Source of the DNA: Planotetraspora silvatica
GTDB taxonomy: Bacteria > Actinomycetota > Actinomycetes > Streptosporangiales > Streptosporangiaceae
Direction of reading: 5' to 3'
DNA: 64,000 nucleotides
NCBI RefSeq assembly: GCF_016863315.1
Contig: NZ_BOOQ01000028.1
Coordinates: 62,001-126,000, forward strand
The notes below the pieces were generated by a model that searched no databases, had not been told where the DNA came from, and saw nothing but the letters and a program-made list of their open reading frames with translations. The stretch's first letter is position 1. Each line of letters starts with the position of its first letter. The translations under genes were made by a program, and so were the position numbers. Positions 36,114-50,935 of this stretch are shown one piece after another.

Positions 36114-36345
36114 GTGATCATGCACAAGTTCTTGATCATGCTGGCTGACCGGCCGACCCTTTGTCCGTGATCATGCACACTTTCGGTCACGCGTGGCCCG
36201 ACCAGCGCATATTCCGTTCGTGATCATGCACAGGTTCGATGCCGTGCCGTACGAGCAGGGTCAACGCGCTGCGTGATCATGCACAGGTTCGCTGTCGTGC
36301 CGTACGAGCAGGGTGAACGCACTGCGTGATCATGCGGATTCCGCC
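36114..36345 (+). repeat. 53-bp two-box repeat array 1 (five forward copies)
   Basis: Box A cores TGATCATGCAC begin at 36115, 36168, 36221 and 36274; a degenerate fifth begins at 36327 (TGATCATGCGG). All four intervals are exactly 53 bp. Box B (CTGACCAGC-like) precedes copies 2 and 3 at 36145-36153 and 36198-36206, in each case ending 14 bp before TGATCA. Copies 4 and 5 are preceded by nearly identical sequence, a recent duplication. An extra TGATCATGC lies 18 bp after copy 1. The array fills the gap between the minus-strand exporter and the plus-strand ubiA; no gene is visible in it. Confidence 0.9.
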
Positions 36346-36389
36346 GTGCCTGCGGGCCAGGTGGTGATCGGCGCCAGAGTTACGCTCTG

Positions 36390-37241
36390 GTGGTGGCGAT
36401 GGGGCGTGGCTCCTGGGCGGGGGCACTGGGCGGGCTCGCGAGGGCATGCCATCCCGGGCCGACCGTGGCCGTCACCGCCCTGGTCACCGCACTCGCGGTG
36501 GCCGCCGGACGCGACACCGCAGGCAGCGCCCTCGTGGCGGCGGCGATCCTCACCGGCCAACTCTCGGTGGGCTGGTGCAACGACGCCGTGGACGCGGGCC
36601 GCGACACCGCCGCCGGGCGTGCGGAGAAACCCATCGTCAGCGGCCAGGTCGGCGTGAAGACCGTTTATGTGTCCGCGTTCTCCGCGTTCGTCGTCTGCGT
36701 GCCGCTTTCGTTCGCCTGCGGCCTGCTGGCGGGCACCGTCCACCTCATCGCGGTCGCGGGAGCATGGGCCTACAACCTGCGACTGAAGGCGACGCTCTTC
36801 TCATGGGTGCCGTACGTCGTGGGGTTCGGCAGCCTGCCGGTGTTCGTGGTGACCGGGCTCCCCGGACGGCCGTGGCCGGCCTGGTGGGTGGTCGTCGCGG
36901 CGGCCGCCCTCGGCCTCGGGGCGCATCTCGCGAACGTCCTGCCGGACATCGGACAGGATGTGGCCGTCGGCGTCCGCGGATGGCCACAACGTCTGGGGGC
37001 GTCCCGCGTCCGCGCGTTGATCCCGGTGCCCCTGCTCGCCGCTTCCGCGCTGCTCGTGTTCGCACCTCCGGGGCCGCCCGACGCCGTCGCCTGGGCTGGA
37101 CTGGCCGCGGTGACCGCGTTCGGCCTTGCGGGTACGGCCCTCGGCGGCTTGTCGCCGAAGATCCCCTTCGCGACGGCCATCGCGTGCGCGGCCGTCGACG
37201 TCGGCCTCCTTCTCGCGTCCGGGACCGGAGTCGGCGCCTGA
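36390..37241 (+). CDS. UbiA-family prenyltransferase
   Basis: 283 aa from GTG 36390 (GTG 36393 or ATG 36399 also possible; no ribosome site, so a leaderless mRNA is conceivable). The first Asp-rich motif is NDAVDAGRD (N64, D65, D68, D72). The second is LPDIGQD in the cytosolic loop near residue 190. About eight membrane helices are predicted. These enzymes attach isoprenoid chains to aromatic acceptors in the membrane. The gene lies between two repeat half-arrays and upstream of a type III PKS, methyltransferase and monooxygenase. This is the gene set of the agq-type pathway, where the UbiA enzyme prenylates an alkylquinol. The acceptor is inferred, not shown. Confidence 0.85.
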   Translation: MVAMGRGSWAGALGGLARACHPGPTVAVTALVTALAVAAGRDTAGSALVAAAILTGQLSVGWCNDAVDAGRDTAAGRAEKPIVSGQVGVKTVYVSAFSAFVVCVPLSFACGLLAGTVHLIAVAGAWAYNLRLKATLFSWVPYVVGFGSLPVFVVTGLPGRPWPAWWVVVAAAALGLGAHLANVLPDIGQDVAVGVRGWPQRLGASRVRALIPVPLLAASALLVFAPPGPPDAVAWAGLAAVTAFGLAGTALGGLSPKIPFATAIACAAVDVGLLLASGTGVGA

Positions 37242-37274
37242 CGACGGCCCACAGTGCGGCGGCGGGCGCGCGAC

Positions 37275-37525
37275 CATCCACGCATGATCACGAACGGAGT
37301 ACGCGCTGGTCAGACGTTACGCGACCGAAAGTGTGCATGATCACGAACAAAGAGTCGGCTGGTCAGCGGGCATGCCCACGAATGCATGCATGATCACGCG
37401 CCGAGGTGGGGCTGGTCGTGGGGAGATTCACGAATCTGTGCATGATCACGACCGGGGAAATGGGCTGGTCGCCGGGCATAACTGCGAACCTGTGCATGAT
37501 CACCCCCAATCCCTTGGCCGGAGTG
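37275..37525 (-). repeat. 53-bp two-box repeat array 2 (five reverse copies)
   Basis: Reverse-oriented copies have TGATCA cores at 37285, 37338, 37391, 37443 and 37497 (intervals 53, 53, 52, 54). Upstream of each core on the plus strand is TGTGCA or a variant. Box B (GCTGGTCAG) begins 20-21 bp after the core start in the first four copies: 37305, 37358, 37411, 37464. The last copy has only a remnant. It occupies the whole gap between ubiA and the type III PKS gene. The two sides, array 1 and array 2, point inward to ubiA. Confidence 0.9.
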
Positions 37526-37596
37526 ATCGGCATGGGGACGCTCTTGGCGGGCAAAAGAGATATGCCGAAGGTTTCGCCAGCCCGGGGGATTTTGAT

Positions 37597-38652
37597 ATGA
37601 CGCGAATCGCCGCTGTCCACGGAGTCCTTCCCCCGAACCGGTACCCCCAGGAAGAGATCACCGACGTCTTCGCCAAGGTCTGCCTGCCCCAAGGCGGCGA
37701 CCGGAGACTGCTCGACCGGCTCCACACCAGCGCCCGCGTCTCGCACCGCAATCTCGTTCTCCCGCTCGACCAGTACGGCAAGCTCGACGGATTCGGCATG
37801 GCCAACGATCTGTTCATCGAGGCGGCCGTCGAGCTCGGCGCCGAGGCCATCACCGGCGCGCTCGACGCGGCGGGCCTCACCCCGGACGACGTCGACATGA
37901 TCATGTGCACGTCGGTGACCGGCATCGCGGCCCCATCCGTCGACGCGAGGCTGGTGAACCGCCTCGGCCTGCGTCCGGACGTGAAGCGGGTCCCCGTCTT
38001 CGGTCTGGGCTGCGTGGCCGGCGCCGCGGGGATCGCCCGCCTGCACGACTACCTGCGCGGCTGGCCCGGCCATGTGGCCGTCCTGCTCTCGGTGGAGTTG
38101 TGCTCGCTCACGCTCCAGCGGGGGGACGGATCGATCGCCAACCTGGTCGCGAGCGCGTTGTTCGGGGACGGCGCCGCGGCGGTCGTCGCCGTCGGGGACG
38201 AGCGGGCGGCGGGGCAGGGTCCCACGGTCGTGGACACCCGCAGCCACCTCTACCCGGAGTCCGGCCGGGTGATGGGCTGGGACGTCCGCGACTCCGGCTT
38301 CAAGGTCGTGCTGGACGCCGGCGTCCCCGACGTCGTACGGACCTACCTCGCCGGCGACGTGGACGCCTTCCTGCGCGGCCACGGGCTGGCCGCGCCCGAC
38401 ATGACGGCGTGGGTGTGCCATCCCGGCGGCCCGAAGGTCCTCGACGCGGTGGCCGAGGCGCTCGAGCTCCCGGGCGGCGCGCTCGACATGACCTGGCGGT
38501 CATTGGACGCGATCGGGAACCTGTCCTCCTCGTCCGTCCTCCACGTCCTCAGGGACACCCTCGCCCTCCGTCCGCCGCCGCCCGGCACCCCCGGGCTGCT
38601 GATCGCGATGGGCCCCGGCTTCTGTTCCGAGCTCGTCCTCCTGCGCTGGTAA
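37597..38652 (+). CDS. Type III polyketide synthase (alkylresorcinol/alkylpyrone type)
   Basis: 351 aa. The catalytic triad is C139 in FGLGCVAGAA, H275 in CHPGGPKVL and N308 in GNLSSSSVLH. The GFGPG-equivalent loop is MGPGFCSEL near the end. Such enzymes extend a fatty acyl starter with malonyl-CoA and cyclise it to resorcinols, pyrones or quinol precursors. The start is the ATG after GGGGGATTTTGAT; in-frame residues upstream are repeat-array DNA. The next two genes encode a methyltransferase and an FAD monooxygenase, as in the srsABC operon of Streptomyces griseus. The starter unit cannot be read from sequence. Confidence 0.92.
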   Translation: MTRIAAVHGVLPPNRYPQEEITDVFAKVCLPQGGDRRLLDRLHTSARVSHRNLVLPLDQYGKLDGFGMANDLFIEAAVELGAEAITGALDAAGLTPDDVDMIMCTSVTGIAAPSVDARLVNRLGLRPDVKRVPVFGLGCVAGAAGIARLHDYLRGWPGHVAVLLSVELCSLTLQRGDGSIANLVASALFGDGAAAVVAVGDERAAGQGPTVVDTRSHLYPESGRVMGWDVRDSGFKVVLDAGVPDVVRTYLAGDVDAFLRGHGLAAPDMTAWVCHPGGPKVLDAVAEALELPGGALDMTWRSLDAIGNLSSSSVLHVLRDTLALRPPPPGTPGLLIAMGPGFCSELVLLRW

Positions 38653-38669
38653 CCCGGAGGTTCCCGCAC

Positions 38670-39230
38670 GTGTCACCCTGGTACGCACTGCTCGTCGTCC
38701 TCGTCGCGGTGGAACGCCTCGCCGAACTGGTCGTGGCCCGCCGCAACGCGCGGTGGAGTCTGGCGCGAGGCGGGGTCGTCGCCGGACGCGGCCACTACCC
38801 CTGGATGGTCGCCCTCCACACGGGGCTGCTGATCGGGTGCCTGCTGGAGGTGTGGCTGGCGGGCAGGCCGTTCGTCCCCGCGCTCGGCTGGCCCATGGTC
38901 GTCCTCGTCCTGGCGGCGCAGGGCCTGCGCTGGTGGTGCATCACCACCCTCGGTCGTCAGTGGAACACCGAGGTCATCGTGGTGCCCGGCCTGCCCCTGG
39001 TGACCCGCGGGCCGTACAGCCTGCCGTGGCTGCGCCACCCGAACTACGTGGCGGTGGCGGTCGAGGGGGCGGCGCTGCCGCTGGTCCACACCGCGTGGCT
39101 GACCGCGGTCGTCTTCACCGTGCTGAACGCCGTCCTGATGGTCACCAGGATCCGGTGCGAGGAGTCCGTCATGGACGAGCTTTCCGCCGCGTCCACGGGC
39201 TCCGGTCCGCGGGGAGGGACGCAGCAGTGA
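38670..39230 (+). CDS. Isoprenylcysteine carboxyl methyltransferase-like protein (SrsB/AgqB type)
   Basis: 186 aa from a GTG with GGAGG 9 nt upstream. It has four to five membrane helices and the ICMT motif GPYSLPWLRHPNYVAVAVEG (RHPNY at 122-126, E132), plus RCEE at 162-165, which binds S-adenosylmethionine. In phenolic lipid clusters this enzyme O-methylates a resorcinol or quinol. The GTGA overlap with the FAD monooxygenase gene and the 17-bp gap after the PKS stop show one operon. Confidence 0.9.
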   Translation: MSPWYALLVVLVAVERLAELVVARRNARWSLARGGVVAGRGHYPWMVALHTGLLIGCLLEVWLAGRPFVPALGWPMVVLVLAAQGLRWWCITTLGRQWNTEVIVVPGLPLVTRGPYSLPWLRHPNYVAVAVEGAALPLVHTAWLTAVVFTVLNAVLMVTRIRCEESVMDELSAASTGSGPRGGTQQ

Positions 39231-40252
39231 TCGACGTCCTCGTCGCCGGCGGCGGCCCGGCGGGGCTCGCGACCGCGATCAACGCCGCGCGGGCCGGGAT
39301 GGAGGCGGTCGTGGTGGAGCCGCGGGCGGGCCCCGTGGACAAGGCCTGCGGCGAGGGACTGATGCCGACGGGGGCCGCCGCTCTCCGGTCGATGGGCGTG
39401 CTCATGGACGGCAGGCCGTTCCGGGGGATCAGTTACTTCGACGGATTCCATCGAGCGCAGGCGGCCTTCCGCGACGGCCTCGGGATCGGCGTGCGGCGGA
39501 CCGTCCTGCACGCGGCCCTCGCCGGCCGCGCGGAGGATCTCGGCGTCCGCGTCGTCTCCGGCCATGTGGACGGCGTATGCCAGGAGGCCGGCTCCGTGCT
39601 GGCGTCGGTCGGCGGCCGGCCCCTGCGGGCGAGGTGGCTGGTCGCCGCCGACGGGCTGCACTCCCCCATCCGGGCGATGCTCGGGCTGGAGCCGCGCCCT
39701 TCGCGCCTCCGGAGGTACGGCCTGCGCCGCCACTACCGCACGGCCCCGTGGACGGACTTCGTGGAGGTGCACTGGGCTCCCGGAGGGGAGGCATATGTCA
39801 CCCCGGTGGGCGACGACCTCGTCGGGGTGGCCGTGCTCAGCTCCCGGCGCCGGGCCTACGACGACCACCTGGCGGAGTTCCCCGATCTGCGCGCCCGGCT
39901 GGACGGCCCGGCGGCGACTCCGGTGCGCGGGGCGGGCCCTCTGCTCCAGCGCGTACGGTCCCGGGTGGCCGGCCGGGTGCTGCTCGTGGGCGACGCGGCC
40001 GGATACGTGGACGCGCTCACCGGTGAGGGTCTCTCGCTGGCGGTGTCGTCGTCGGAGGCTCTGGTGCGCTGCCTGCGGGAAGGGCGGCCCGAGAGCTACG
40101 AGCAGGCCTGGCGCCGCATCTCCCTGCGCCATCGGGTGCTGACCTCCGCGCTGCTGACGGCTCGGCGTCATCAGGGGTCCGCACGCCTGGTCGTTCCAGC
40201 GGCGCAGCGCCTGCCCGCCCTTTTCAGCGCGGCGGTCCGGGCACTCGCCTGA
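39227..40252 (+). CDS. FAD-dependent monooxygenase (SrsC/AgqC type)
   Basis: 341 aa from a GTG overlapping the previous stop. The FAD-binding GxGxxG is AGGGPAGLATA (G8, G10, G13). The second motif, GDAAGYVDALTGEGLSLA, is the GD-x6-P-like segment of group A flavoprotein hydroxylases. It also carries DKACGEGLMPTGAAAL, typical of geranylgeranyl reductase-like and aromatic hydroxylase members. It probably hydroxylates the alkylresorcinol ring to a hydroquinone. A geranylgeranyl reductase role is the alternative. Last gene of the three-gene operon. Confidence 0.85.
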   Translation: MIDVLVAGGGPAGLATAINAARAGMEAVVVEPRAGPVDKACGEGLMPTGAAALRSMGVLMDGRPFRGISYFDGFHRAQAAFRDGLGIGVRRTVLHAALAGRAEDLGVRVVSGHVDGVCQEAGSVLASVGGRPLRARWLVAADGLHSPIRAMLGLEPRPSRLRRYGLRRHYRTAPWTDFVEVHWAPGGEAYVTPVGDDLVGVAVLSSRRRAYDDHLAEFPDLRARLDGPAATPVRGAGPLLQRVRSRVAGRVLLVGDAAGYVDALTGEGLSLAVSSSEALVRCLREGRPESYEQAWRRISLRHRVLTSALLTARRHQGSARLVVPAAQRLPALFSAAVRALA

Positions 40253-40468
40253 GACTCCAGATTGTGCGCGGCCGCGGCCCGAATTCTCTATCCTCGATAA
40301 CCGAATCACGCACATCGCGACGATTCCGGCATCCATCCGGCGATTCGCAAATAGAACGCAATTCGACTCCGCATTAAGTCGCCATATTCATTGAACTTTC
40401 ATGCAATGATCTAGCCGTGCATCCGAGCAAGGCCGATCCTCTGGCGAGGGGGACTGGAGGATCTTCAC

Positions 40469-41176
40469 GTGCCCAGCTCCGCCATGCTCGCTCTCGCCGC
40501 CGTGACGATCTGCCTGCTGTGCGCCGCCGCCGCCATGCTTGTCCGGTGTTCACGACGGCCGGGCCCTCCTGACGGCGAGGCGCTGCGCAAGGCCGCGGCC
40601 GAGGCGCGTGAGCAGCTCGGCCGGGACGTGCACGACCTGGTCGGCAGCCGCCTCTGGCTGGCCTCCCTGCAGGGGGAGCTGGCCTACCGCCTCGCCGACG
40701 AGAACTCCCCCGTACGGCCGGCGCTGGCCAACGTGATCGAGTCCGTACGGCAGGCCGCGACCGACATCCGCAACGTCACCCGTTCCTACCAGGAGATCTC
40801 CCTCTGGTCGGAGATCGCCGACGCCCGGGCCGTCTTCACAGCGCGCGGCGTCGATTGCACGCTACGACTGGCGGAGGTGGACCTCACCCCCGAGGCGGGC
40901 GCCGTTTTCGCCGTCACGGTCCGCGAGGCCGTGACCAACGTCCTCCGGCACAGCGACGCACGCCATTGCCTCATCGAGATGAGGCTCACGGGACGCTCCG
41001 TCACGCTCACCGTCGCCAACGACGGCGTGGAACCCCTGACCCGCCCGCAGAGCGGCACCGGCATCGACAGCCTGCGCAACCGCGCGGCCGCGCTCGACGG
41101 CACGGTCAGCACGATCCTCGACCTGGACGGCTGGTTCCGGCTGGTGGCGGAGCTCCCCAGCCGCCCGTCCCGCTAA
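40469..41176 (+). CDS. DesK/NarX-type sensor histidine kinase
   Basis: 235 aa from a GTG with GGAGG 8 nt upstream. One membrane helix (about 5-25, AMLALAAVTICLLCAAAAML) is followed by a HisKA_3 domain with phospho-His H55 in GRDVHDLVGSRLWL. The HATPase has the N box VREAVTNVLRHSDARHC and the G box GTGIDSLRNRAAALDGTV. It has no obvious sensory loop, so it would sense through the membrane or a partner. It opens the ram-like locus, while a NarL-type response regulator closes it at 48180. The two are a likely pair, though on different strands. The 216-bp gap upstream is AT-richer but has no clear promoter. Confidence 0.88.
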   Translation: MPSSAMLALAAVTICLLCAAAAMLVRCSRRPGPPDGEALRKAAAEAREQLGRDVHDLVGSRLWLASLQGELAYRLADENSPVRPALANVIESVRQAATDIRNVTRSYQEISLWSEIADARAVFTARGVDCTLRLAEVDLTPEAGAVFAVTVREAVTNVLRHSDARHCLIEMRLTGRSVTLTVANDGVEPLTRPQSGTGIDSLRNRAAALDGTVSTILDLDGWFRLVAELPSRPSR

Positions 41177-41476
41177 CGGAGCCGAGCGCCGGCGCGGGCG
41201 CGTGACCACCGTTGCGCACCGCCGGCACCGAGACCGGCCCCGGCGGGTCGGCGCCCCCACCGCTCCCAGAATGCGGTCACGGGGCCTCTCACCTGTGAAT
41301 CCACCGGGTTTCCGCGTTCGCGTCCCGACCCCTCCATGGATCCATCATGCGATCACCCATGACCTGAATCACGGTCGGCCACATGACGTACGCCTATACA
41401 GCTGTTGACTCACGTAACTTGGCCCAACCCCTTAATTCCGGAATTCTTTGAAGTGTTCGACCTAAGGGGACATCTT
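41177..41476 (+). promoter_or_regulatory. Upstream region of the lanthipeptide operon
   Basis: No gene is seen in these 300 bp. The right part is AT-rich. TATACA at 41395-41400 fits a -10 box, but no good -35 lies 17-18 bp upstream, suggesting an activator-dependent promoter. ATCAC repeats at 41352 and 41368, and CATGAC at 41358 and 41381, could form part of an activator site. AAGGGG at 41464 is the ribosome site for the GTG at 41477. Confidence 0.45.
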
Positions 41477-44074: not shown

Positions 44075-44212
44075 ATGGCACTTCTCGACCTGCAGACCCT
44101 CGAGACCCCCGGTGGTCACGGCGGCGGTCACGGTGGCGGCGGCGGCAGCAACCTGAGCCTGCTGGCCTGCACTCCGCACGAGAACAGCAGCCTCAGCCTG
44201 CTCTGCGGCTGA
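44075..44212 (+). CDS. lanA: Class III lanthipeptide precursor (SapB/AmfS-like)
   Basis: 45 aa, starting directly after the lanKC stop with GGAGGT 8 nt upstream. The leader has the class III recognition motif as LLDLQ at residues 3-7. Residues 13-24 are only Gly and His (H15, H19), an unusual linker. The core has two S-x2-S-x(2-3)-C units: S25, S28, C32 and S38, S41, C44, the spacing of labionin/lanthionine rings in SapB and AmfS. The predicted product is a short amphiphilic, Leu-rich two-ring peptide, probably a surfactant for aerial growth. This is inferred from the family. Leader cleavage site unknown. Confidence 0.93.
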   Translation: MALLDLQTLETPGGHGGGHGGGGGSNLSLLACTPHENSSLSLLCG

Positions 44213-44232
44213 TGACGATTTAGCACGACAGA

Positions 44233-44259
44233 CCTGGGCGGCCCTCGTGGCCGCCCAGG
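44233..44259 (+). terminator. Hairpin between precursor and exporter genes
   Basis: An 11-bp perfect stem (CCTGGGCGGCC and its complement) with a 5-nt loop lies 20 bp after the precursor stop and 75 bp before the first exporter ATG. It probably acts as a partial terminator, letting precursor mRNA exceed exporter mRNA, and as a 3' stabiliser. Confidence 0.65.
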
Positions 44260-44333
44260 CTCTCGTCTCCCCGGGGCGCTCCAGCCGAGGCCCCGGGGAG
44301 CGGCCGGTTCAGGCAGGTTCAGGGAAGGGGCCG

Positions 44334-46025
44334 ATGTCCTCACGAGCGGCGGACCAGCTGATCAGCACGGCCGCGCGGCACAGCGGACGGTGGCTGTGGC
44401 TCCTCGCCGCCACCGCGCTCGCCGGCTCCGTCGCGGAGTTGTTCCTCCCGATGGCGCTCGGCCGTACCCTCGACGCCCTGACCGGGACCACACCGGGCGG
44501 CCATGGATGGCTGCCCACGACCGTACTTCTCGTGATCTTCGTCGTGGCCTGCGACGCGCTCGGCGTCCTGTCGTCCGGAGCGAGCGGGGCACATGCGGCC
44601 CTGTGGTTGCGCCGCCGGGTGGTGGGCCACGTCCTCGCCGTCGGTGCGGCTATGACCAGGCGGTTCACGACCGGCGACCTGGTGACCCGCGCGGGGGTGA
44701 ACGTGGAGGAGGCCGCACGCGCGCCCGAGGCCGTCGTCACCGCCGCCTCGCTGGTCATCCCCTCCGCCGGAAGCGTCGTCGCCCTCGCCCTCATCGATCC
44801 GTGGCTGGCGGCGACGCTCGTCACCGGGCTCCTGGCCATCGTCGGCGTCGTCAGGGCGTTCATGCGCAAGACCACCGCCGCCGCGGCGGGTTACCAGCAG
44901 GCTCAGGGGGAGATCGCGGCCCGGCTCGTCGGCGCCCTCGCGGGCGCGAGCACCATCACCGCGGCGGGCACCCAGGACCAGGAGGCGGGCCGCGTCCTCA
45001 GGCCGCTCCCCCGTCTCCGCGCGCACGGGCTGGCGCTGTGGCGGCTCCACGCGCGCGCGGGTGTGCAGGCCGCCGTGGTGATCCCGCTGCTGGAGACGGC
45101 CGTGCTCGCCGTGGGCGGGCTCAGGCTCGCGAGCGGCGACCTCACCGTCGGCGAACTGCTCGCCGGAGCCCGCTACGCCGTCCTGGGCGCGGGCCTCGGC
45201 TCGGCGATCGGTTACGCGGGCCGGCTCGCCCGCGCGCGGTCGGCAGCCCACCGCCTCGAACGGCTGCTCGCGGAGCGGCCCCTCTCGTACGGCTCCCGCC
45301 CACCGGCGGGCGGGCGCGGGCGGCTGGAGTTCCGCCGGGTCACCGTGCGGGCGAACGGCACGCCGCTGCTGAGCGACATCGATCTGGTGGTCCCCGGCGG
45401 GTGCTGCGTGGCGGTCGTCGGCCGATCGGGCTCGGGCAAGTCGTCGCTCGCGGCGGTGGCGGGAAGGCTGGTCGACCCGGACTGGGGATCGGTGATGCTC
45501 GACGGCGTCCCGCTGCCGGAGATCGGGCGTGACCACTTGCGCCGCGCGGTCGGGTACGCGTTCGAGCGCCCGGTCCTGCTCGGCGCCACCGTCGGCGACG
45601 CCGTCGGCTTCGGGCAGCGGTGGCCGGACGCCGGCCGCATCCACGCCGCGTCGCAGGATGCCTGCGCCGACGCGTTCATCCGCCGCCTGCCCCGGGGATA
45701 CGCCACCCCGATGGCGGAGGCGCCGATGTCGGGCGGCCAGGCCCAGCGCGTCGGCCTCGCCCGGGCGTTCGCCCAGGCCGAGCGGCTGCTCATCCTCGAC
45801 GACGCCATGTCGAGCCTCGACACCCTCACCGAGCGCCAGGTCAGCCGCGCGCTCACCGGCCGGCTGGCCGACCGCACCCGCCTGGTCGTGGCCCACCGGG
45901 TCACCACGGCCGCCCGGGCCGACCAGGTCGTCTGGCTGGAGAACGGCCGCGTCCGCGCGCACGGCACGCACGAATCGCTGTGGGAAGACCCGGACTACCG
46001 GGCGGTCTTCCAGGGGGCCTCATGA
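44334..46025 (+). CDS. ABC exporter half-transporter (RamA/AmfB-like)
   Basis: 563 aa from the ATG preceded by GGGAAGGGG; an earlier in-frame start at 44247 overlaps the hairpin and is rejected. A six-helix membrane domain (from LWLLAATALAGSVAELFLPM) is fused to an ATPase. Walker A is GRSGSGKSSLAA, the signature is MSGGQAQRVGLARAFAQAER, and Walker B is LLILDDAMSSLD. The Walker B carries DD instead of DE, which suggests a degenerate site. It pairs with the next half-transporter to export the lanthipeptide. It overlaps the next gene by 4 nt (ATGA). Confidence 0.92.
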   Translation: MSSRAADQLISTAARHSGRWLWLLAATALAGSVAELFLPMALGRTLDALTGTTPGGHGWLPTTVLLVIFVVACDALGVLSSGASGAHAALWLRRRVVGHVLAVGAAMTRRFTTGDLVTRAGVNVEEAARAPEAVVTAASLVIPSAGSVVALALIDPWLAATLVTGLLAIVGVVRAFMRKTTAAAAGYQQAQGEIAARLVGALAGASTITAAGTQDQEAGRVLRPLPRLRAHGLALWRLHARAGVQAAVVIPLLETAVLAVGGLRLASGDLTVGELLAGARYAVLGAGLGSAIGYAGRLARARSAAHRLERLLAERPLSYGSRPPAGGRGRLEFRRVTVRANGTPLLSDIDLVVPGGCCVAVVGRSGSGKSSLAAVAGRLVDPDWGSVMLDGVPLPEIGRDHLRRAVGYAFERPVLLGATVGDAVGFGQRWPDAGRIHAASQDACADAFIRRLPRGYATPMAEAPMSGGQAQRVGLARAFAQAERLLILDDAMSSLDTLTERQVSRALTGRLADRTRLVVAHRVTTAARADQVVWLENGRVRAHGTHESLWEDPDYRAVFQGAS

Positions 46026-47719
46026 GGGGCGGGCTCGTGCGGATCTTCCTGCGCCGGTCGTTGTCGCGGGAGCCGTACCGGATCGCCCGTCTGGGCGCCT
46101 GGTCGCTGGCCGAGGTGGTGCCCGCGTTCGCGGGAGGCCACGCGGTGGCGCGGGCGGTCGACGACGGGTTCGCGGCGGGGCGTCCCGGGACCGGGCTCGC
46201 CTGGCTGGCCCTGCTCGCCGCCTCCTGGCTGCTGGCGGCCGTCGCGGCCCGGCAGATCCTGCTGAACATCGCCGCGGTGGTCGAGCCCTTCCGCGACGAT
46301 CTACTGACCCACGTGGTCTCCGCCGCGTTGCGGGCGGGACGTGACGGCGACGCCGCGGCGGTGGCCCGGATGAACCATCAGGTCGAGCTCGCCAGGGACG
46401 CATTCGGCGCGATCATCACCGTGGTGAGATCGTTCGTGTTCACGCTGGTCAGCGTGGCGCTCGGCATGCTGACGCTTGCGCCGGCCGTCGTGCCGCTCGT
46501 GCTTCCTCCCGTGCTGCTCGGACTGGTGCTGTTCCTCGTGTCGCTGCCCGCTCTGGCCCGGCGGCAGCGGGACTTCATCGTGGCCGACGAGCGGACGGCC
46601 TCGGCTGTCGCCGTCATGGCCGGCGGTCTGCGCGACGTCGCGGCCTGCGGAGCCGAGGTCCGCGTCGCCGCCACCGTGGGCCGCCAGATCGGCGGCCAGG
46701 CCCGGGCCGCCCGCGCGCTGGCCCGGGTCACGGCCACCCGCACGTTGTCACTCGCCGTGGGGGGCTGGCTGCCCGTCCTCCTGCTGCTCGCGGGCACACC
46801 GTGGCTGATCGACCAGGGGCTGACGGCGGGGGTGGTCCTCGGCGCGCTCACGTACGTCATGCAGTCGCTCACGCCCGCGCTGTCCGGGCTCGTCCAGGGG
46901 CTGGGTGTCAGTGGTGTACGGCTGGCCGTCACGATGGAGCGGATCCTCGGCGGTGCGGTCCGGCCGGAGGTCCCTGAGCCGCGGCGGCGCCCCGAGGGCA
47001 CGGGGCTGAAGCTGAGCGGAGTCACCTTCGCGTACGGTCCCGAGGCGGAGCCGGTGATCGACGGTCTCGACCTGGTCGTGCCGGAAGGCGACCACCTGGC
47101 GGTGGTCGGGCCGAGCGGGATCGGCAAGTCCACCCTCGCCGGCCTCGTCGCCGGAGTGCTGCGGCCGGCCGAGGGCTCCGTGCTGATCGGCGGCGTCCCC
47201 GCGAGTGAGGCGCACGAGGCGGCGCGGGCGCTGATCCCGCAGGAGGCCTACGTCTTCCATGGAAGCCTCGCCGACAACCTCACCTACCTCGCCCCTGAGG
47301 CGCCAGCCGGGGCGGTCGACGAGGCGGTGGCCGCCTTCGGCCTGGCCGACCTGGCCCAGCGGTTCGACGGCTACCACGCCGAGATCGACCCCGCCGAACT
47401 GTCCGCGGGCGAGCGGCAGTTGATCGCGCTGGCCAGGACCTATCTGTCGCCCGCGCGGCTGGTCGTGCTCGACGAGGCGACCTGCCATCTCGACCCCGCC
47501 GCCGAGGCCAGGGCCGAGGCCGCGTTCGCCGCGCGAGGGGGAACGCTGATCGTCGTCGCCCATCGGATCTCCTCCGCGCTCCGCGCCCGGCGGGTCCTGG
47601 TCATGGACGGCACCCGCGTCCTGCTCGGGACACATGAGGACCTGGTCGGCACCTCACCGCTGTACGCCGACCTCGTCGGCCTGTGGGCAGATCACCGCCT
47701 CCCCCATTCTTTGGCGTGA
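46022..47719 (+). CDS. ABC exporter half-transporter (RamB/AmfA-like)
   Basis: 565 aa from the ATG overlapping the previous stop. A membrane domain with six helices (for instance AWLALLAASWLLAAVAARQI) is fused to an ATPase. Walker A is GPSGIGKSTLAG, the signature is LSAGERQLIALARTYLSPAR, and Walker B is LVVLDEATCHLD. The intact DE indicates the catalytic partner of the heterodimer with a degenerate first subunit. The stop TGA (47717-47719) is itself the first three bases of the TGATCA core opening repeat array 3. Long in-frame extensions upstream lie inside the first half-transporter gene. Confidence 0.92.
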   Translation: MRGGLVRIFLRRSLSREPYRIARLGAWSLAEVVPAFAGGHAVARAVDDGFAAGRPGTGLAWLALLAASWLLAAVAARQILLNIAAVVEPFRDDLLTHVVSAALRAGRDGDAAAVARMNHQVELARDAFGAIITVVRSFVFTLVSVALGMLTLAPAVVPLVLPPVLLGLVLFLVSLPALARRQRDFIVADERTASAVAVMAGGLRDVAACGAEVRVAATVGRQIGGQARAARALARVTATRTLSLAVGGWLPVLLLLAGTPWLIDQGLTAGVVLGALTYVMQSLTPALSGLVQGLGVSGVRLAVTMERILGGAVRPEVPEPRRRPEGTGLKLSGVTFAYGPEAEPVIDGLDLVVPEGDHLAVVGPSGIGKSTLAGLVAGVLRPAEGSVLIGGVPASEAHEAARALIPQEAYVFHGSLADNLTYLAPEAPAGAVDEAVAAFGLADLAQRFDGYHAEIDPAELSAGERQLIALARTYLSPARLVVLDEATCHLDPAAEARAEAAFAARGGTLIVVAHRISSALRARRVLVMDGTRVLLGTHEDLVGTSPLYADLVGLWADHRLPHSLA

Positions 47720-48140
47720 TCATGCACAGGTTCGTGATCACCCGCACTCACCTGCCCACTTCCCGTGCGTGATCATGCACAGATTCGTGATCATGCCCGC
47801 CTACCAGCCCCTTTCCCCGCCGTGATCATGCACAACTTCGCGATCAACGTACCCGACCAGGGCAAATGACAACGGTGATCATGCATGAACTCGGCCAACG
47901 CTCGGGCCGCGCATGATCACGAACGGTGTTCCGGCAGGTCAGGCGTGCCGTACGCGAAGATGCGCATGATCACGCCAACGGAAGGCACTGGTCAGAGTTC
48001 GGATGCAGGAAGTTGTACATGATCACGGATTGCGAACGCGCAGGTCAGTGCCGCTTCTTGCGAACCTGTGCATGATCACGCACAAAGAAGTGCCTGGTGA
48101 GGGGGTGTGATCCCGAACCTGTGCATGATCACCGCCCGGG
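47716..48140. repeat. 53-bp two-box repeat array 3 (four forward, five reverse copies)
   Basis: Forward TGATCA cores are at 47717, 47770, 47823, 47876, all 53 bp apart. Reverse cores are at 47914, 47967, 48020, 48073, 48126, also all 53 bp apart. The turn-around is 38 bp, core to core. Box B is present in every forward gap (ending 47755, 47808, 47861) and after the first four reverse cores (offset 20-21). An extra TGATCA or near-copy lies 18 bp inside several cores (47735, 47788, 48108). It lies between the convergent exporter gene and the response regulator gene and fills nearly the whole 460-bp gap. Confidence 0.93.
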
Positions 48141-48179
48141 GGGCGTTGACTGAGCCGCCGCTCGAACTGCTCGCCTCAG

Positions 48180-48836
48180 TCAGCGCCGGGGGCGCTGGCG
48201 GAGGATGCCGATCTCGCGCCCGTTGGCCGGCCACAACCAGCCCGACTCGGAGGCGATCTGGATCGCCTCCACGCGTGACCGGGCGCCGAGTTTGGCGAGG
48301 ATGCGGGACAGGTAGTTCCGGACCGTTCCATGCGAGAGCGAAAACCGCTCGGCTATCTCGCTGACGGTGGCCCCCGCGGCGGCGGTCTCCAGGATGTCCA
48401 GTTCGCGGGCCGTGAGCGGGTTGCCGTCCGTGTCGAGCGCGGCCGCCGCGAGTTCGGGGTCGACCACGCGCTCACCAGCGTACACACGGCGGATGCAGTC
48501 GACGAGATGGCCGGGCTCGGCGTCCTTCACGATGAATCCCCGCACGTTGGCGTCCAGCGCCCGGCGCAGGGCCAGGGGCGTGCCGAGGCCGGTGAGGATC
48601 ACCGTCTTGCAGGTGGGTAATCGCCGGTGCAGTTCGGAGGCCGCGGTCAGCCCGTCGATCCCGGGCATCCCGATGTCGAGGAGGGCGACGTCCGGCCGGC
48701 GGAGACAGGCGAGCCTGACGATCTCCTCGCCTCTCGCGGTCTCGGCGACCACCTCGAGGTCGTCCTCGCAGGAGAGAAGCGCGATCAAGGCCTTACGGAT
48801 CAGGTGCATGTCCTCGGCGAGCAGCAGACGAATCAC
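48180..48836 (-). CDS. NarL/LuxR-type response regulator (RamR-like)
   Basis: 218 aa from a GTG. The receiver domain has acidic D9, phospho-acceptor D54 in VALLDIGMPGIDG and Lys near residue 105 (GFIVKDAEPGH). The C-terminal LuxR HTH is LTARELDILETAAAGATVSE, then IAERFSLSHGTVRNYLSRIL. In Streptomyces the ram operon is activated by the orphan regulator RamR, encoded next to ramB on the opposite strand. The same position here argues for a RamR equivalent. The sensor kinase at 40469 provides a plausible partner. The target promoter is probably upstream of lanKC. Confidence 0.92.
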   Translation of the reverse strand: MIRLLLAEDMHLIRKALIALLSCEDDLEVVAETARGEEIVRLACLRRPDVALLDIGMPGIDGLTAASELHRRLPTCKTVILTGLGTPLALRRALDANVRGFIVKDAEPGHLVDCIRRVYAGERVVDPELAAAALDTDGNPLTARELDILETAAAGATVSEIAERFSLSHGTVRNYLSRILAKLGARSRVEAIQIASESGWLWPANGREIGILRQRPRR

Positions 48837-49114
48837 AAGTGGTTCCCTCGCGCTTCCTTGTCCCCGACACCCGGACCGTGACGGCCGGGCTCACTCACTA
48901 TGGACGCCGGACATCGTTTTCGGTTGCCCTCTCTACCCCATCTATTACCTTTAATCGCGAGTCTTGTCGGCGAAAGCCGTACAGGTCTGGAAATTGCGCG
49001 AATAGCAGAAAAATGCCCGGCCCCACGAGGGAGCCGGGCACGAACGAGTAGCTAGAACCACCTCAGCCCGGTCGATTATGTGATTTTTCGGGCAAAGATG
49101 GAATTTATTGCAAT
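48837..49114. other. Intergenic region with promoter-like AT-rich stretch
   Basis: 278 bp with no gene. The part near 48930-49010 is distinctly less GC-rich than its surroundings (for example ATCTATTACCTTTAATCG) and probably holds the response-regulator promoter. The end carries the hairpin at 49014-49040. Confidence 0.5.
49014..49040 (-). terminator. Hairpin terminator downstream of the secreted protein gene
   Basis: An 8-bp perfect stem TGCCCGGC with its complement and an 11-nt loop lies about 75 bp after the stop of the minus-strand gene at 49115. It would also protect the start region of the response regulator from read-through. Confidence 0.55.
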
Positions 49115-50350
49115 TTATGGGTTCTTATCCGCACTGATGTCACCGGCGTAGTGACCGGTGCCCGCATATTCCGCACGCCAGACGCCATCGCCCATTCCGC
49201 GAAGGCGGCCGCTGAACCAGCCGTCCTTGTCGGTGACGGCCGTGCCCATCGTGCGCCAGGTCCCCGCGCCGGCGGGCCGGAAGCACAGGGCCACCGACTG
49301 ACCGGCGAACGGCCGGTAGTCCACCCGCCCGAGCGGGTCGACGCGCAGCAGCGTTCCGGTGATGCGGACCTGGTTGTCGTTGCGGACGACGTTCACCCCT
49401 TCGATCTCGGTCTGCCTCTTGAGGAAGAAGATCGTCCGAGAGGTGACGACGGTGCCTGCCGCGTTCCTCGCGGTGGCCGTGACCGTCCACTGGCCGCTGG
49501 GGTACCACCGCGACAGCGGTTTCTCCGGCAGGAACAGCCAGGTCTCCCATGCGGACCCGCTGCTGCTGGTGTTCGGGACCGACGTGGCAGCGGCCCGCAT
49601 GGATCCATGCGGGATGGTGTGCGCGGTCGTGACGGCGGCGGGCGTAGTGGACGCGGGCGTGGTCGACGGAGCGCTCCCGGTCTGCGCCGGGAGTTGCGCC
49701 GGAGTCTGGGCGGGAACCTTGGCCGGAGCCTGGGCCTGCGCGGGAGGCGGCGCCTGCGCCGGAACCGGCGCGGGAGCCTTCACCTGCACGGGAGTCTGGG
49801 CCGGAGCAGGCACCTTCGCCTGCACGGGGGCCTGGGCCGGAGCCTGAGCCGGAACCTGCACGGGGACCGGTGCCTGAACCGGGGCTTGGGCCGGAGCCGG
49901 CGGCTGGGCCGGGGCGACGACCTGCGGCGCGGCGGCGGGAGCCTGCGCGGGGACCTGAGCCGGAGCCTGAACCGGAGCTTGGGCGGGAGCTTGGAGCGGG
50001 ATCGGCACCGGCGCCTGAGCCGGCACTGGGGGTTGGGCGGGGACCCCCGGCACGACGTTGCCCGGGTTGGCGGGCTGCTGCGGGACGCCGGGCGCCGGTG
50101 GAGTCTTAGGACCATCTGGAGTCACAGGTCCGGTACGGCCAGGTTCGAGGAGAACGGAGACGGCGGTCGCACCCCGCGCCATCACCTCGATCACGACCTT
50201 GACCGAACCCGACGGCCCCACCACTGGGGTTCCCGGCTTCACCGTGATGGATCGGATGGCCAGTTCATCGGCGGCCGTCGCCGGGGCCGAACCGGCCGCC
50301 AACGTAACCGCCAGTCCGAGGATAGGCGTCGCAATCAAACGTCTCATCAT
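49115..50350 (-). CDS. Secreted Pro/Ala/Gln-rich spacer protein with C-terminal beta domain
   Basis: 411 aa from an ATG pair (50350/50347). A signal peptide RRLIATPILGLAVTLAAGSA ends near ATAAD. A small N-terminal beta domain (DELAIRSITVKPGTPVVGPS) is followed by about 140 residues of P-A-Q-A-P-V repeats (about 80-220) as an extended wall-spanning spacer. A Ser/Thr-rich stretch and a C-terminal Ig-like beta domain with VTATARNAAGTVVTSRTIFF follow. No sortase signal is seen. The stop follows GTGHYAGDISADKNP. An upstream in-frame extension encodes only array-4 DNA and is rejected. Function unknown; the position next to a ram-like locus suggests, but does not show, a morphogenetic role. Confidence 0.7.
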   Translation of the reverse strand: MMRRLIATPILGLAVTLAAGSAPATAADELAIRSITVKPGTPVVGPSGSVKVVIEVMARGATAVSVLLEPGRTGPVTPDGPKTPPAPGVPQQPANPGNVVPGVPAQPPVPAQAPVPIPLQAPAQAPVQAPAQVPAQAPAAAPQVVAPAQPPAPAQAPVQAPVPVQVPAQAPAQAPVQAKVPAPAQTPVQVKAPAPVPAQAPPPAQAQAPAKVPAQTPAQLPAQTGSAPSTTPASTTPAAVTTAHTIPHGSMRAAATSVPNTSSSGSAWETWLFLPEKPLSRWYPSGQWTVTATARNAAGTVVTSRTIFFLKRQTEIEGVNVVRNDNQVRITGTLLRVDPLGRVDYRPFAGQSVALCFRPAGAGTWRTMGTAVTDKDGWFSGRLRGMGDGVWRAEYAGTGHYAGDISADKNP

Positions 50351-50434
50351 GGCCAGTGACCGTACGCAGCCGGAGGTAATCCCCCCGCCCCTGACACACA
50401 CCCCAATGAGCAAAACCCACCCCCCACCCCCACC

Positions 50435-50935
50435 GTGATCATGCACACATTCGCAGATCAGCCCCCGACCAGCCACTTCTCTTATCGTGATCATGCACAG
50501 ATTCGGGGAAGGTGGCGCCGAACTGCGGGTGGGCACCCCTGATCATGCACAACTTCGTGCATCCGGTCCTTGACCAGCCTGTTCCTATGACCTGATCATG
50601 CACGACCCGCGGCACGCTCCATCAACGCTCTTCCAGCGCCCGGCGCCGCCTGAAGCCCCGACTACACCTGCCACCTGGTCGACGTATATGACGGGCCCGT
50701 ACGGCTCTGCATGATCACGGGCGGCATTTCCGCAGGCCATCGCTACTTGTTCCGAACCTGCGCATGATCACGGATGCCGTACCCGCAGGTCGGCACCGCT
50801 TTCCCCGAATCTGTGCATGATCACGACAGAGGAAGGGGCTGGCCAGGGGTGAATCCACGAATCCCTGCATGATCACGGGCCAAGGACCCGCTGGTCAGCG
50901 CTGCCTTCTTCGAACCTGTGCATGATCACGCGGGG
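50435..50935. repeat. 53-bp two-box repeat array 4 (four forward, five reverse copies)
   Basis: Forward TGATCA cores are at 50436, 50488, 50540, 50593 (intervals 52, 52, 53). Reverse cores are at 50712, 50765, 50818, 50870, 50923 (53, 53, 52, 53). The turn-around is 119 bp. Box B ends at 50473 and 50578 on the left. On the right GCTGGTCAG or a close variant starts exactly 20 bp after each of the first four reverse cores (50732, 50785, 50838, 50890). The array lies between the divergent secreted-protein gene (start 50350) and the POT transporter (51113). After it, 50936-51112 is AT-rich and probably holds the transporter promoter. Confidence 0.93.

What the first reader, a model, noticed from the sequence alone, without database searches (positions are those of the whole stretch)
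36114..50935. A new-looking family of two-box, 53-bp-phased intergenic repeats
I count 28 copies of a box-A core TGATCATGCAC (extended GTGATCATGCACAGGTTCG) in four clusters. The second box, CTGACCAGC, sits at a constant offset: it ends 14 bp before TGATCA in forward copies. The copy-to-copy period is 53 bp in most cases (range 52-54), about five turns of B-DNA, so all sites face the same side. The sequence between boxes varies. 53 is not a multiple of 3, so it is not coding. I found no such cluster elsewhere in the window. This looks like a phased protein-binding array or a novel dispersed element and matches no family I know.
Basis: seen in the sequence. Interest (0 to 1): 0.88.

Follow-up and report, generated by a model that had tools for sequence, protein, structure and literature searches.

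The report
Nuclease-linked phased repeat arrays
Hundreds of regularly spaced DNA repeat arrays lie between the genes of these soil bacteria, and one more pair brackets a single gene for a probable DNA-cutting enzyme, which suggests a repeat-and-enzyme system resembling, but not related to, known mobile repeats.

Summary
The window's 28 boxes belong to 711 exact copies of TGATCATGCAC in its Planotetraspora genome (reversed control 0). They form about 53-bp lattices that almost always face inward (+ units then - units). Units are box A (CGTGATCATGCACAGGTTCG) with box B between, in intergenic DNA, a median 16 bp from the neighbour's stop codon where a 3' end faces the array.

The box changes genome-wide between species ("dialects") while arrays stay at orthologous places. 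The same core with other tails recurs in other families of Actinomycetes. It is not a hairpin REP, not a CRISPR, and this genome has no Y1/RAYT transposase match.

Key result: in 13 of 44 scanned places holding a PF18741 (Vsr-like PD-(D/E)XK) gene, boxes lie on both sides. These are one place in each of 13 genomes from four families, including the window's own (G000:C26, about 7771-8739). A 14th (G415) has a variant-core inverted repeat. The protein fuses an AbiEi-type DNA-binding region to the nuclease.

Best reading: a REPIN/RAYT-like but non-homologous repeat-nuclease system, with the window's arrays as satellites. Binding and cutting are inferred, not shown; a terminator role is a serious rival.

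The parts
36115..36337 (+). Left half-array of a bracketing pair: five A boxes at 36115, 36168, 36221, 36274, 36327 (53-bp steps) with B boxes between
36465..37241 (+). UbiA-family gene (PF01040, E 1.4e-17) bracketed by the two half-arrays; in G205 and G058 it lies in the opposite orientation
   Evidence: only strictly bracketed gene of 783 called in the fetched G000 pieces
37280..37502 (-). Right half-array of the pair: A boxes at 37280, 37333, 37386, 37438, 37492; 116 bp of it is an 82% inverted copy of the left half
   Evidence: (I1)
47717..47886 (+). Left half of array 3; the TGA of the first TGATCA is the stop codon of the called gene 46022-47719
47909..48131 (-). Right half of array 3, in a convergent intergenic region; the whole array is absent in G205 and Planotetraspora sp. 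A-T 1434 (G058)
50436..50603 (+). Left half of array 4; an array is present at the same place in all five relatives examined
50707..50928 (-). Right half of array 4
50412..50433 (+). Example of the C-rich, G-poor tract outside an outermost A box

Best explanation
The arrays are satellites of a nuclease-linked repeat system. Its core is one gene for a fusion of an AbiEi-type winged-helix DNA-binding region and a Vsr-like PD-(D/E)XK nuclease, bracketed by inward-facing arrays of the same boxes (in the window's genome at G000:C26 about 7771-8739, outside the window). The dispersed arrays are copies of the ends without the gene. Shown here: the inward-facing lattice, the dialects, the bracketed gene and its conserved motif residues, copying of array blocks with borders at or near A boxes, and a locus shared by two genera. 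Inferred: the protein binds box A (and perhaps B) in phased multimers, nicks or cuts there, and repair copies array sequence between sites. That would spread and homogenise the boxes (dialects), keep the 53-bp lattice and trigger inversions at arrays. Arrays persist mainly just after stop codons, where insertion is harmless or may even serve as a terminator.
For: Of 44 distinct PF18741-gene places scanned, 13 have GTGATCNTG boxes on both sides: 11 strictly + on the left and - on the right (G000, G202, G203, G205, G066, G070, G075, G369, G428, G575, G487) and 2 in mixed orientation (G017, G018). They are one per genome, in four families, each with that genome's own tail (by eye). A 14th, G415, has a 48-nt inverted repeat (83% complementary) with core CTGATCATGCAC. 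In the fetched G000 pieces only 1 of 783 called genes is strictly bracketed. The locus is orthologous between Planotetraspora and another genus: flanks 83-86% identical. E192-S, D224, E235-Y-D-G, H242, D251, R254, R255, G262-W are invariant in 14 of 14 aligned proteins: 11 from bracketed places, G027 (one side), G415 (variant core) and G138 (no boxes). At E<=0.01 PF18741 matches 14 of 14 and two PADLOC AbiEi profiles match 14 of 14. In three paralogous pairs inspected the copied block ends at, or within 11 bp of, A boxes. Dialect shifts occur at orthologous arrays: +10 is G in 18 of 25 boxes in G205 against C in 27 of 33 in G000.
Against: Binding, cutting and movement are not shown. There was no target-site duplication (65 elements). 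In 8 of the 23 array-bearing genomes (G204, G058, G072, G019, G086, G211, G212, G021) no bracketed copy was located, though not every homolog there was scanned; G058 keeps 568 boxes. PF18741 homologs also occur in array-poor genomes (37 of 41 genomes matched), and a conserved homolog in Nonomuraea gerenzanensis has no box above chance within 5.7 kb. In G415 the box occurs only beside the gene in 332 kb, so my prediction of dispersed copies there failed. In G204 and G058 half-arrays are shorter, but the share of exact cores (0.79, 0.66) is not clearly below that of genomes with the gene (0.69-0.96). The copied blocks could also come from ordinary gene conversion.
Confidence: 0.55

Rival explanations
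1. The arrays are polar, protein-bound transcription terminators (roadblocks): each half faces the gene whose 3' end it abuts and stops RNA polymerase; the nuclease protein, or another protein, is only the DNA-binding part.
For: Outer A box lies a median 16 bp from gene 3' ends (n=122) against 105 bp from 5' ends (n=57). 29 of 61 paired arrays are in convergent regions, against 140 of 799 of all intergenic regions >=60 bp in the pool. Convergent gene ends with arrays (n=81) have weaker hairpins than a sample of 150 without (best 40-nt energy -15.4 against -22.0 kcal/mol). At C2:303.6k three genomes have a hairpin where G058 has an array (by eye); at locus L165 two genomes have an array and no array is seen in 13 others.
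Against: Part of the hairpin difference is base composition (shuffled means -13.4 and -17.4). 9 of 61 paired arrays lie between divergent genes. The C-rich tract is equally strong where the neighbour's 5' end faces the array (skew 0.62/0.47 against 0.51/0.57), so it belongs to the element, not to a transcript. It does not explain bracketing of one gene family or copied blocks. At C2:303.6k the left neighbour also differs in G058.
Confidence: 0.2
2. A conventional transposon whose ends are the arrays, the dispersed copies being MITEs moved by cut-and-paste by the nuclease or by an unrelated transposase.
For: Inward-facing ends, gene between ends, copied blocks bounded at or near A boxes, presence/absence at array 3.
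Against: No target-site duplication in 65 elements. All 6 arrays of C2:235-313k are at the same places in P. mira. The bracketed gene sits at one shared locus in two genera.
Confidence: 0.12
3. Chromosome-organising sites: convergent phased arrays bound by an architectural protein, like loop anchors or insulators.
For: Of 144 clusters none shows - before + and 67 are + then -; a laxer scan of G000 pieces gives 16 + then - and 1 exception at C2:346754. Phasing near five helical turns; L-gene-R brackets.
Against: Brackets can be explained by inversion with inverted duplication: L and R copies are 82-92% alike in five cases and the UbiA gene is inverted in G205 and G058. Spacing is not fixed in other families (31-88 bp between neighbours).
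Confidence: 0.06
4. Orphan defence or toxin-antitoxin module: the AbiEi-nuclease is an antiphage enzyme and the arrays are operator or decoy sites that hold it.
For: PADLOC AbiEi profiles match 14 of 14; AbiEi proteins bind inverted repeats in their own promoter (PMC7319586, abstract); in G000 boxes lie about 100 bp 5' of the gene's probable start.
Against: No AbiEii-like toxin among the neighbouring genes seen in G000 (by eye); hundreds of sites far from the gene; only one phage record has a weak relative (28.6% identity, E 3e-8) and none was confirmed in viral contigs.
Confidence: 0.07

Closest known systems
REPIN / RAYT (REP doublets with a REP-associated tyrosine transposase; PMC3116915, abstract and passages read)
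   Same: Hundreds of extragenic short repeats per genome, inverted doublets and clusters, species-specific repeat variants, a single-copy enzyme gene beside its own repeats, mostly vertical inheritance
   Different: No Y1/HUH transposase match in G000; box A lacks the GTAG/CGTC tag of most REPs (tags: PMC3733652, search listing only) and shows no hairpin signal; 53-bp phased two-box lattice; the linked enzyme is an AbiEi-Vsr-like PD-(D/E)XK fusion
AbiEi antitoxins of type IV toxin-antitoxin AbiE (PMC7319586, abstract read)
   Same: N-terminal DNA-binding region; known members bind inverted repeats at their own promoter
   Different: Fused to a nuclease domain, no toxin partner seen next to it in G000, boxes dispersed in hundreds
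Vsr-family / REase_MTES_1575 (PF18741) nucleases (PMC3710099, passages read)
   Same: Same nuclease domain with conserved E, D, EYDG-H residues
   Different: Described there as part of giant helicase-HEPN proteins; here a small AbiEi fusion linked to repeats
MITEs and IS terminal repeats (recalled)
   Same: Inward-facing ends, with and without a gene between
   Different: Nested ends in a lattice, no target-site duplication
CRISPR arrays (recalled)
   Same: Short repeat, near-constant spacing, varied spacer
   Different: A conserved second box within the spacer, inverted pairs, many dispersed loci

Membership tests
REPIN/RAYT | Y1 (HUH) REP-associated transposase, PF01797, in the genome | tested here: not met
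   0 matches in G000, G202, G203, G204, G017, G018 (G205 has 4, G066 3, G072 2)
REPIN/RAYT | Repeat is a hairpin-forming palindrome with GTAG or CGTC tag | tested here: not met
   Box A has no such tag (sequence); left/right spacer identity at matching rank 0.388 vs 0.375 at other ranks
REPIN/RAYT | Extragenic, inverted doublets, hundreds of copies | tested here: met
   (8 of the 130 multi-box clusters overlap a called gene by more than 20 bp)
REPIN/RAYT | Single-copy enzyme gene adjacent to its own repeats | tested here: met
   Met by a different enzyme: PF18741 gene with boxes on both sides in 13 genomes
MITE / insertion sequence | Target-site duplication | tested here: not met
   65 elements, k = 3, 4, 5, 6, 8 not above shuffled partners
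MITE / insertion sequence | Near-identical dispersed copies | tested here: inconclusive
   7 within-species hits >=120 bp and >=80% identical among 125 elements; some are L/R pairs of one locus
CRISPR | Spacers without conserved sequence | tested here: not met
   Box B core in 54-64% of spacers at ranks 2-5
Intrinsic terminator | GC hairpin with T tract | tested here: inconclusive
   Array-bearing gene ends have weaker hairpins than array-free ones, partly by composition; T tract not tested
Type IV TA (AbiE) | AbiEi-type DNA-binding domain | tested here: met
   AbiEi_1 in 8 of 14, AbiEi_4 in 5 of 14, PADLOC AbiEi in 14 of 14
Type IV TA (AbiE) | Adjacent AbiEii nucleotidyltransferase toxin | tested here: not met
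   Neighbours in G000 look like a GDP-mannose dehydratase and a P450 (read by eye, no profile search)
Vsr-like nuclease (PF18741) | Domain match and conserved motif residues | tested here: met
   PF18741 in 14 of 14 at E<=0.01, invariant residues; by sequence no significant PDB match
Vsr-like nuclease (PF18741) | DNA cleavage | not testable with these tools
   needs biochemistry

The most novel reading that the evidence does not exclude
A new class of genome-resident repeat system, widespread in Actinomycetes. A domesticated AbiEi-Vsr-like nuclease recognises a deeply conserved core (GTGATCATGCA) plus a fast-changing tail, and drives spreading, in-step rewriting (dialects) and helically phased amplification of inward-facing arrays by break-and-copy at its own sites. 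The arrays have taken over as terminators of many genes.
Probability: 0.35. Interest if true: 0.93.

Novelty: categorically new. Interest (0 to 1): 0.86.

Why it matters
If right, bacteria evolved a repeat-enzyme partnership resembling REPIN-RAYT a second time, with an unrelated enzyme fold. It would give a tractable case of concerted evolution: five sister species with two box dialects at the same loci, and two relatives (G204, G058) in which the enzyme was not found and half-arrays are shorter. It would also suggest a function for one of the many orphan DUF559/AbiEi-type proteins of actinobacteria, and offer a putative sequence-specific nuclease family whose recognition tail has changed many times naturally.

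Tried and rejected
RNA hairpin: left/right spacer identity at matching rank 0.388 against 0.375 for other ranks and 0.354 between elements. Rfam: only two sub-threshold hits in 35.5-51.5 kb, taken as chance. RAYT: absent from G000. Target-site duplication: none. G-quadruplex at the C tract: 10.8% against 8.2% in shuffles and 0.7% at array-free gene ends. Rho-type C-rich RNA leader: rejected as the sole reading, because the C tract is independent of the neighbour's direction. Loop anchors from alternation of solitary halves along C2: a small sample, later better explained by inversion and duplication. Structure: AlphaFold of a 287-residue part of the P. kaengkrachanensis protein without an alignment failed (pLDDT 37), so no fold search was made. 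Relatives in viral contigs: none confirmed. Dispersed boxes in G415: predicted, not found in 332 kb. PDB by sequence: nothing significant; best were tannases (E 0.29), with Vsr at E about 0.6.

Limits: gene calls come from a home-made codon scorer, not a standard annotator; stop-codon distances depend on it. Most array statistics use a pool chosen partly by having three phased boxes (80 of the 81 stretches), plus G000 pieces; no cluster is an exact duplicate, but some are orthologs in different species and so not independent.
Full report
OBSERVATION. One search confirms the boxes (63 matches with up to 2 mismatches, shuffled mean 10.85, maximum 19). The window lies in G000:C28, an 8.66-Mb draft genome. 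TGATCATGCAC occurs 711 times in it and its reversed control 0 times. A position matrix of box A finds 110 units in the first 600 kb of contig C2 and 1 in the reversed sequence.

WHERE IT OCCURS. In the family (341 genomes) the exact 11-mer is abundant in all five genomes of the window's genus (711, 664, 639, 242, 175) and in G058 (568); four others have 25-42 and the rest 12 or fewer. Contig lengths identify G203 as P. mira, G204 as P. phitsanulokensis and G058 as Planotetraspora sp. A-T 1434 (inference). A wider pattern (GTGATCWTGCAS) raises G205 to 1022 and shows further carriers (G212 253, G018 221, G075 185, G086 169, G017 169, G211 93, G027 90, G070 63, G066 57). A two-box pattern over 394 genomes of the class hits 40, most with only one or two matches. 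Strong cases outside the family are G369 (165), G428 (95) and G367 (22), with G575 (13) and G487 (6) weaker; the reversed control was 0 in the rows shown.

ANATOMY. The A box is CGTGATCATGCAC-A-G-G/A-TTCG, with B (yTGACCwGC) between successive A boxes. Spacings are 53 bp (361), 52 (30) and 54 (3). In 144 clusters there are 67 paired (+ then -), 30 only +, 33 only - and 14 single boxes; none has - before +. A laxer scan of four G000 pieces gives 16 + then - and one exception, a - box 55 bp before a + array at C2:346754. Box A weakens inward (mean scores 34.3, 33.6, 29.2, 24.3, 22.0). The outermost box usually lacks B (core in 4%), so the element seems to end at box A. Facing inner boxes are often 22 bp apart (7 of 65) or 75 bp (10 of 65), so the lattice runs through a dyad centre. 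Outside the outermost box lies a C-rich tract (C 56%, G 16% at -20 to -10). It is present whichever way the neighbour points.

GENE CONTEXT. Arrays are intergenic: 8 of 130 multi-box clusters overlap a called gene by more than 20 bp. The outer box lies a median 16 bp from 3' ends (n=122; in 30 the TGA of TGATCA is the stop codon) and 105 bp from 5' ends (n=57). Gene ends with arrays have weaker hairpins, partly through composition. At C2:303.6k, G000, G203 and G205 carry a hairpin where G058 has an array and also a new left neighbour (by eye). At the L165 locus of genus g30, G075 and G070 have an array; none is seen in the stretches printed for the 13 other genomes, which hold other intergenic sequence or an extra gene; in four of these only the right side was anchored. 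Two of the 13 (G066, G072) carry arrays elsewhere.

EVOLUTION. All six arrays of C2:235-313k are at the same places in P. mira, and some are shared with G205 and G058. In the window, an array is present at the place of array 4 in all five relatives, and array 3 is absent from G205 and G058. At orthologous arrays the box differs by species: +10 is C in 27 of 33 boxes in G000 and 27 of 29 in P. mira, but G in 18 of 25 in G205; +17 is C in 9 of 15 in G058. Within species a few array blocks are copied between loci (7 hits of at least 120 bp and 80% among 125 elements). In the three pairs inspected the homology starts and stops at, or within 11 bp of, A boxes. Half-arrays that bracket a gene are often inverted copies of each other (82-92% in five cases). 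The window's UbiA gene is inverted in G205 and G058, so its bracket probably arose by inversion with duplication.

OTHER FAMILIES. G369, G428, G575 and G487 have the same core CGTGATCATGCA after a C-rich tract, with their own tails and variable spacing (31-88 bp between neighbours, two gaps over 200). Neighbouring opposite boxes there are + then - 13 times and - then + 3 times. G367 has 22-bp tandem copies. G017 and G018 (same family as the window) show alternating orientations.

THE LINKED GENE. Among bracketed genes, those of G575 and G487 were homologous, and one weakly matched PF18741. A PF18741 search of 41 genomes matched 37, array-poor ones included, so mere presence means little. I then scanned 44 distinct places (23 loci and 24, two loci and one place counted twice), not all matches. 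In 13 the gene has boxes on both sides: 11 strictly + left and - right (G000, G202, G203, G205, G066, G070, G075, G369, G428, G575, G487) and 2 in mixed orientation (G017, G018). Two have boxes on one side (G367, G027). A short fragment (G017 C14) and a dissimilar PF18741 protein (G212) have boxes on one side. The remaining 27 had no array beside the gene on the GTGATC pattern (two held a single stray match). One of these, G415, proved to have a 48-nt inverted repeat with core CTGATCATGCAC, but no other copy in 332 kb. In the fetched G000 pieces 1 of 783 called genes is strictly bracketed. Each bracket uses the local tail (G205: CGTGATCATGCAGAAGTTCG). In G000 the gene is at C26 about 7771-8739 (L309:1393-2361, 322 aa). 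Its flanks are orthologous between Planotetraspora and genus g30 (83-86%); in both it lies between a GDP-mannose dehydratase-like and a P450-like gene (by eye). G369 and G575 carry it near clpX- and valS-like genes (by eye). A homolog in Nonomuraea gerenzanensis (47.5% identity) has no box above chance nearby.

THE PROTEIN. Alignment A1 (14 sequences: 11 bracketed, plus G027, G415 and G138) keeps E192-S, D224, E235-Y-D-G, H242, D251, R254, R255, G262-W. At E<=0.01 PF18741 matches 14 of 14, AbiEi_1 8, AbiEi_4 5, DUF559 5; PADLOC AbiEi 14 of 14. It is therefore an AbiEi-type DNA-binding region fused to a Vsr-like nuclease domain. PMC7319586 (abstract) reports that AbiEi binds inverted repeats in its own promoter.

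LOSS. No bracketed copy was located in G204, G058, G072, G019, G086, G211, G212, G021; not every homolog there was scanned. In G204 and G058 half-arrays are shorter (2.8 and 2.73 units against 3.5-4.5), on small samples (5 and 15 halves); the share of exact cores (0.79, 0.66) does not separate them clearly from the others (0.69-0.96).

MECHANISM. The simplest account is a repeat-enzyme partnership working like REPIN-RAYT (PMC3116915, abstract and passages) with a non-homologous enzyme. Binding, cutting and break-copying are inference. The 3'-end position allows a secondary or alternative terminator role.

NOVELTY. Eight paper searches in the held open-access library listed no title or abstract start describing the motif or such a nuclease-repeat link. 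Searches listed 5 and 12 papers containing the bare letters, judged unrelated from titles and abstract starts and not opened. Subscription papers and preprints were not searched.

Noticed in passing
window 49115-50536 (-): ORF with long Pro/Ala/Gln repeats (12-bp tandem units), perhaps secreted; similar ORFs lie next to the array in P. mira (L105) and P. phitsanulokensis (L078)
   Followed up: partly
L320:1086-1330 (G138): The PF18741 homolog of an array-poor genome (probably Nonomuraea) is abutted by a 49-bp tandem repeat of unrelated sequence on one side and short G-rich repeats on the other
   Followed up: no
L292:7885-8280 (G367): 18 tandem 22-bp copies of GTGATCATGCAGCCGCTCGGCC or near it
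   Followed up: no
L149, L161, L165, L169 (G075): Outermost boxes have a different sequence (GTGATCTTGTAGTTTGTCGCA) from inner ones; it holds stops in two frames
   Followed up: partly
L154, L158, L170 (G086): Same design with a 41-bp period (about four helical turns) instead of 53
   Followed up: partly
L164 (G018): Boxes alternate in orientation with 57/31-bp steps, like tandem palindromes
   Followed up: no
L306 (G017 C14): A 119-aa PF18741 fragment beside an inverted box pair, perhaps a decayed second unit
   Followed up: no
L128 about 9221-9299 (G202): A 20-bp tandem CGTGACCACGCCCCCCTGGC just outside array 3, resembling a decayed or alternative box
   Followed up: no
G000:C2:346754: The only - box found close before a + array (55 bp) in the G000 pieces scanned
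   Followed up: no
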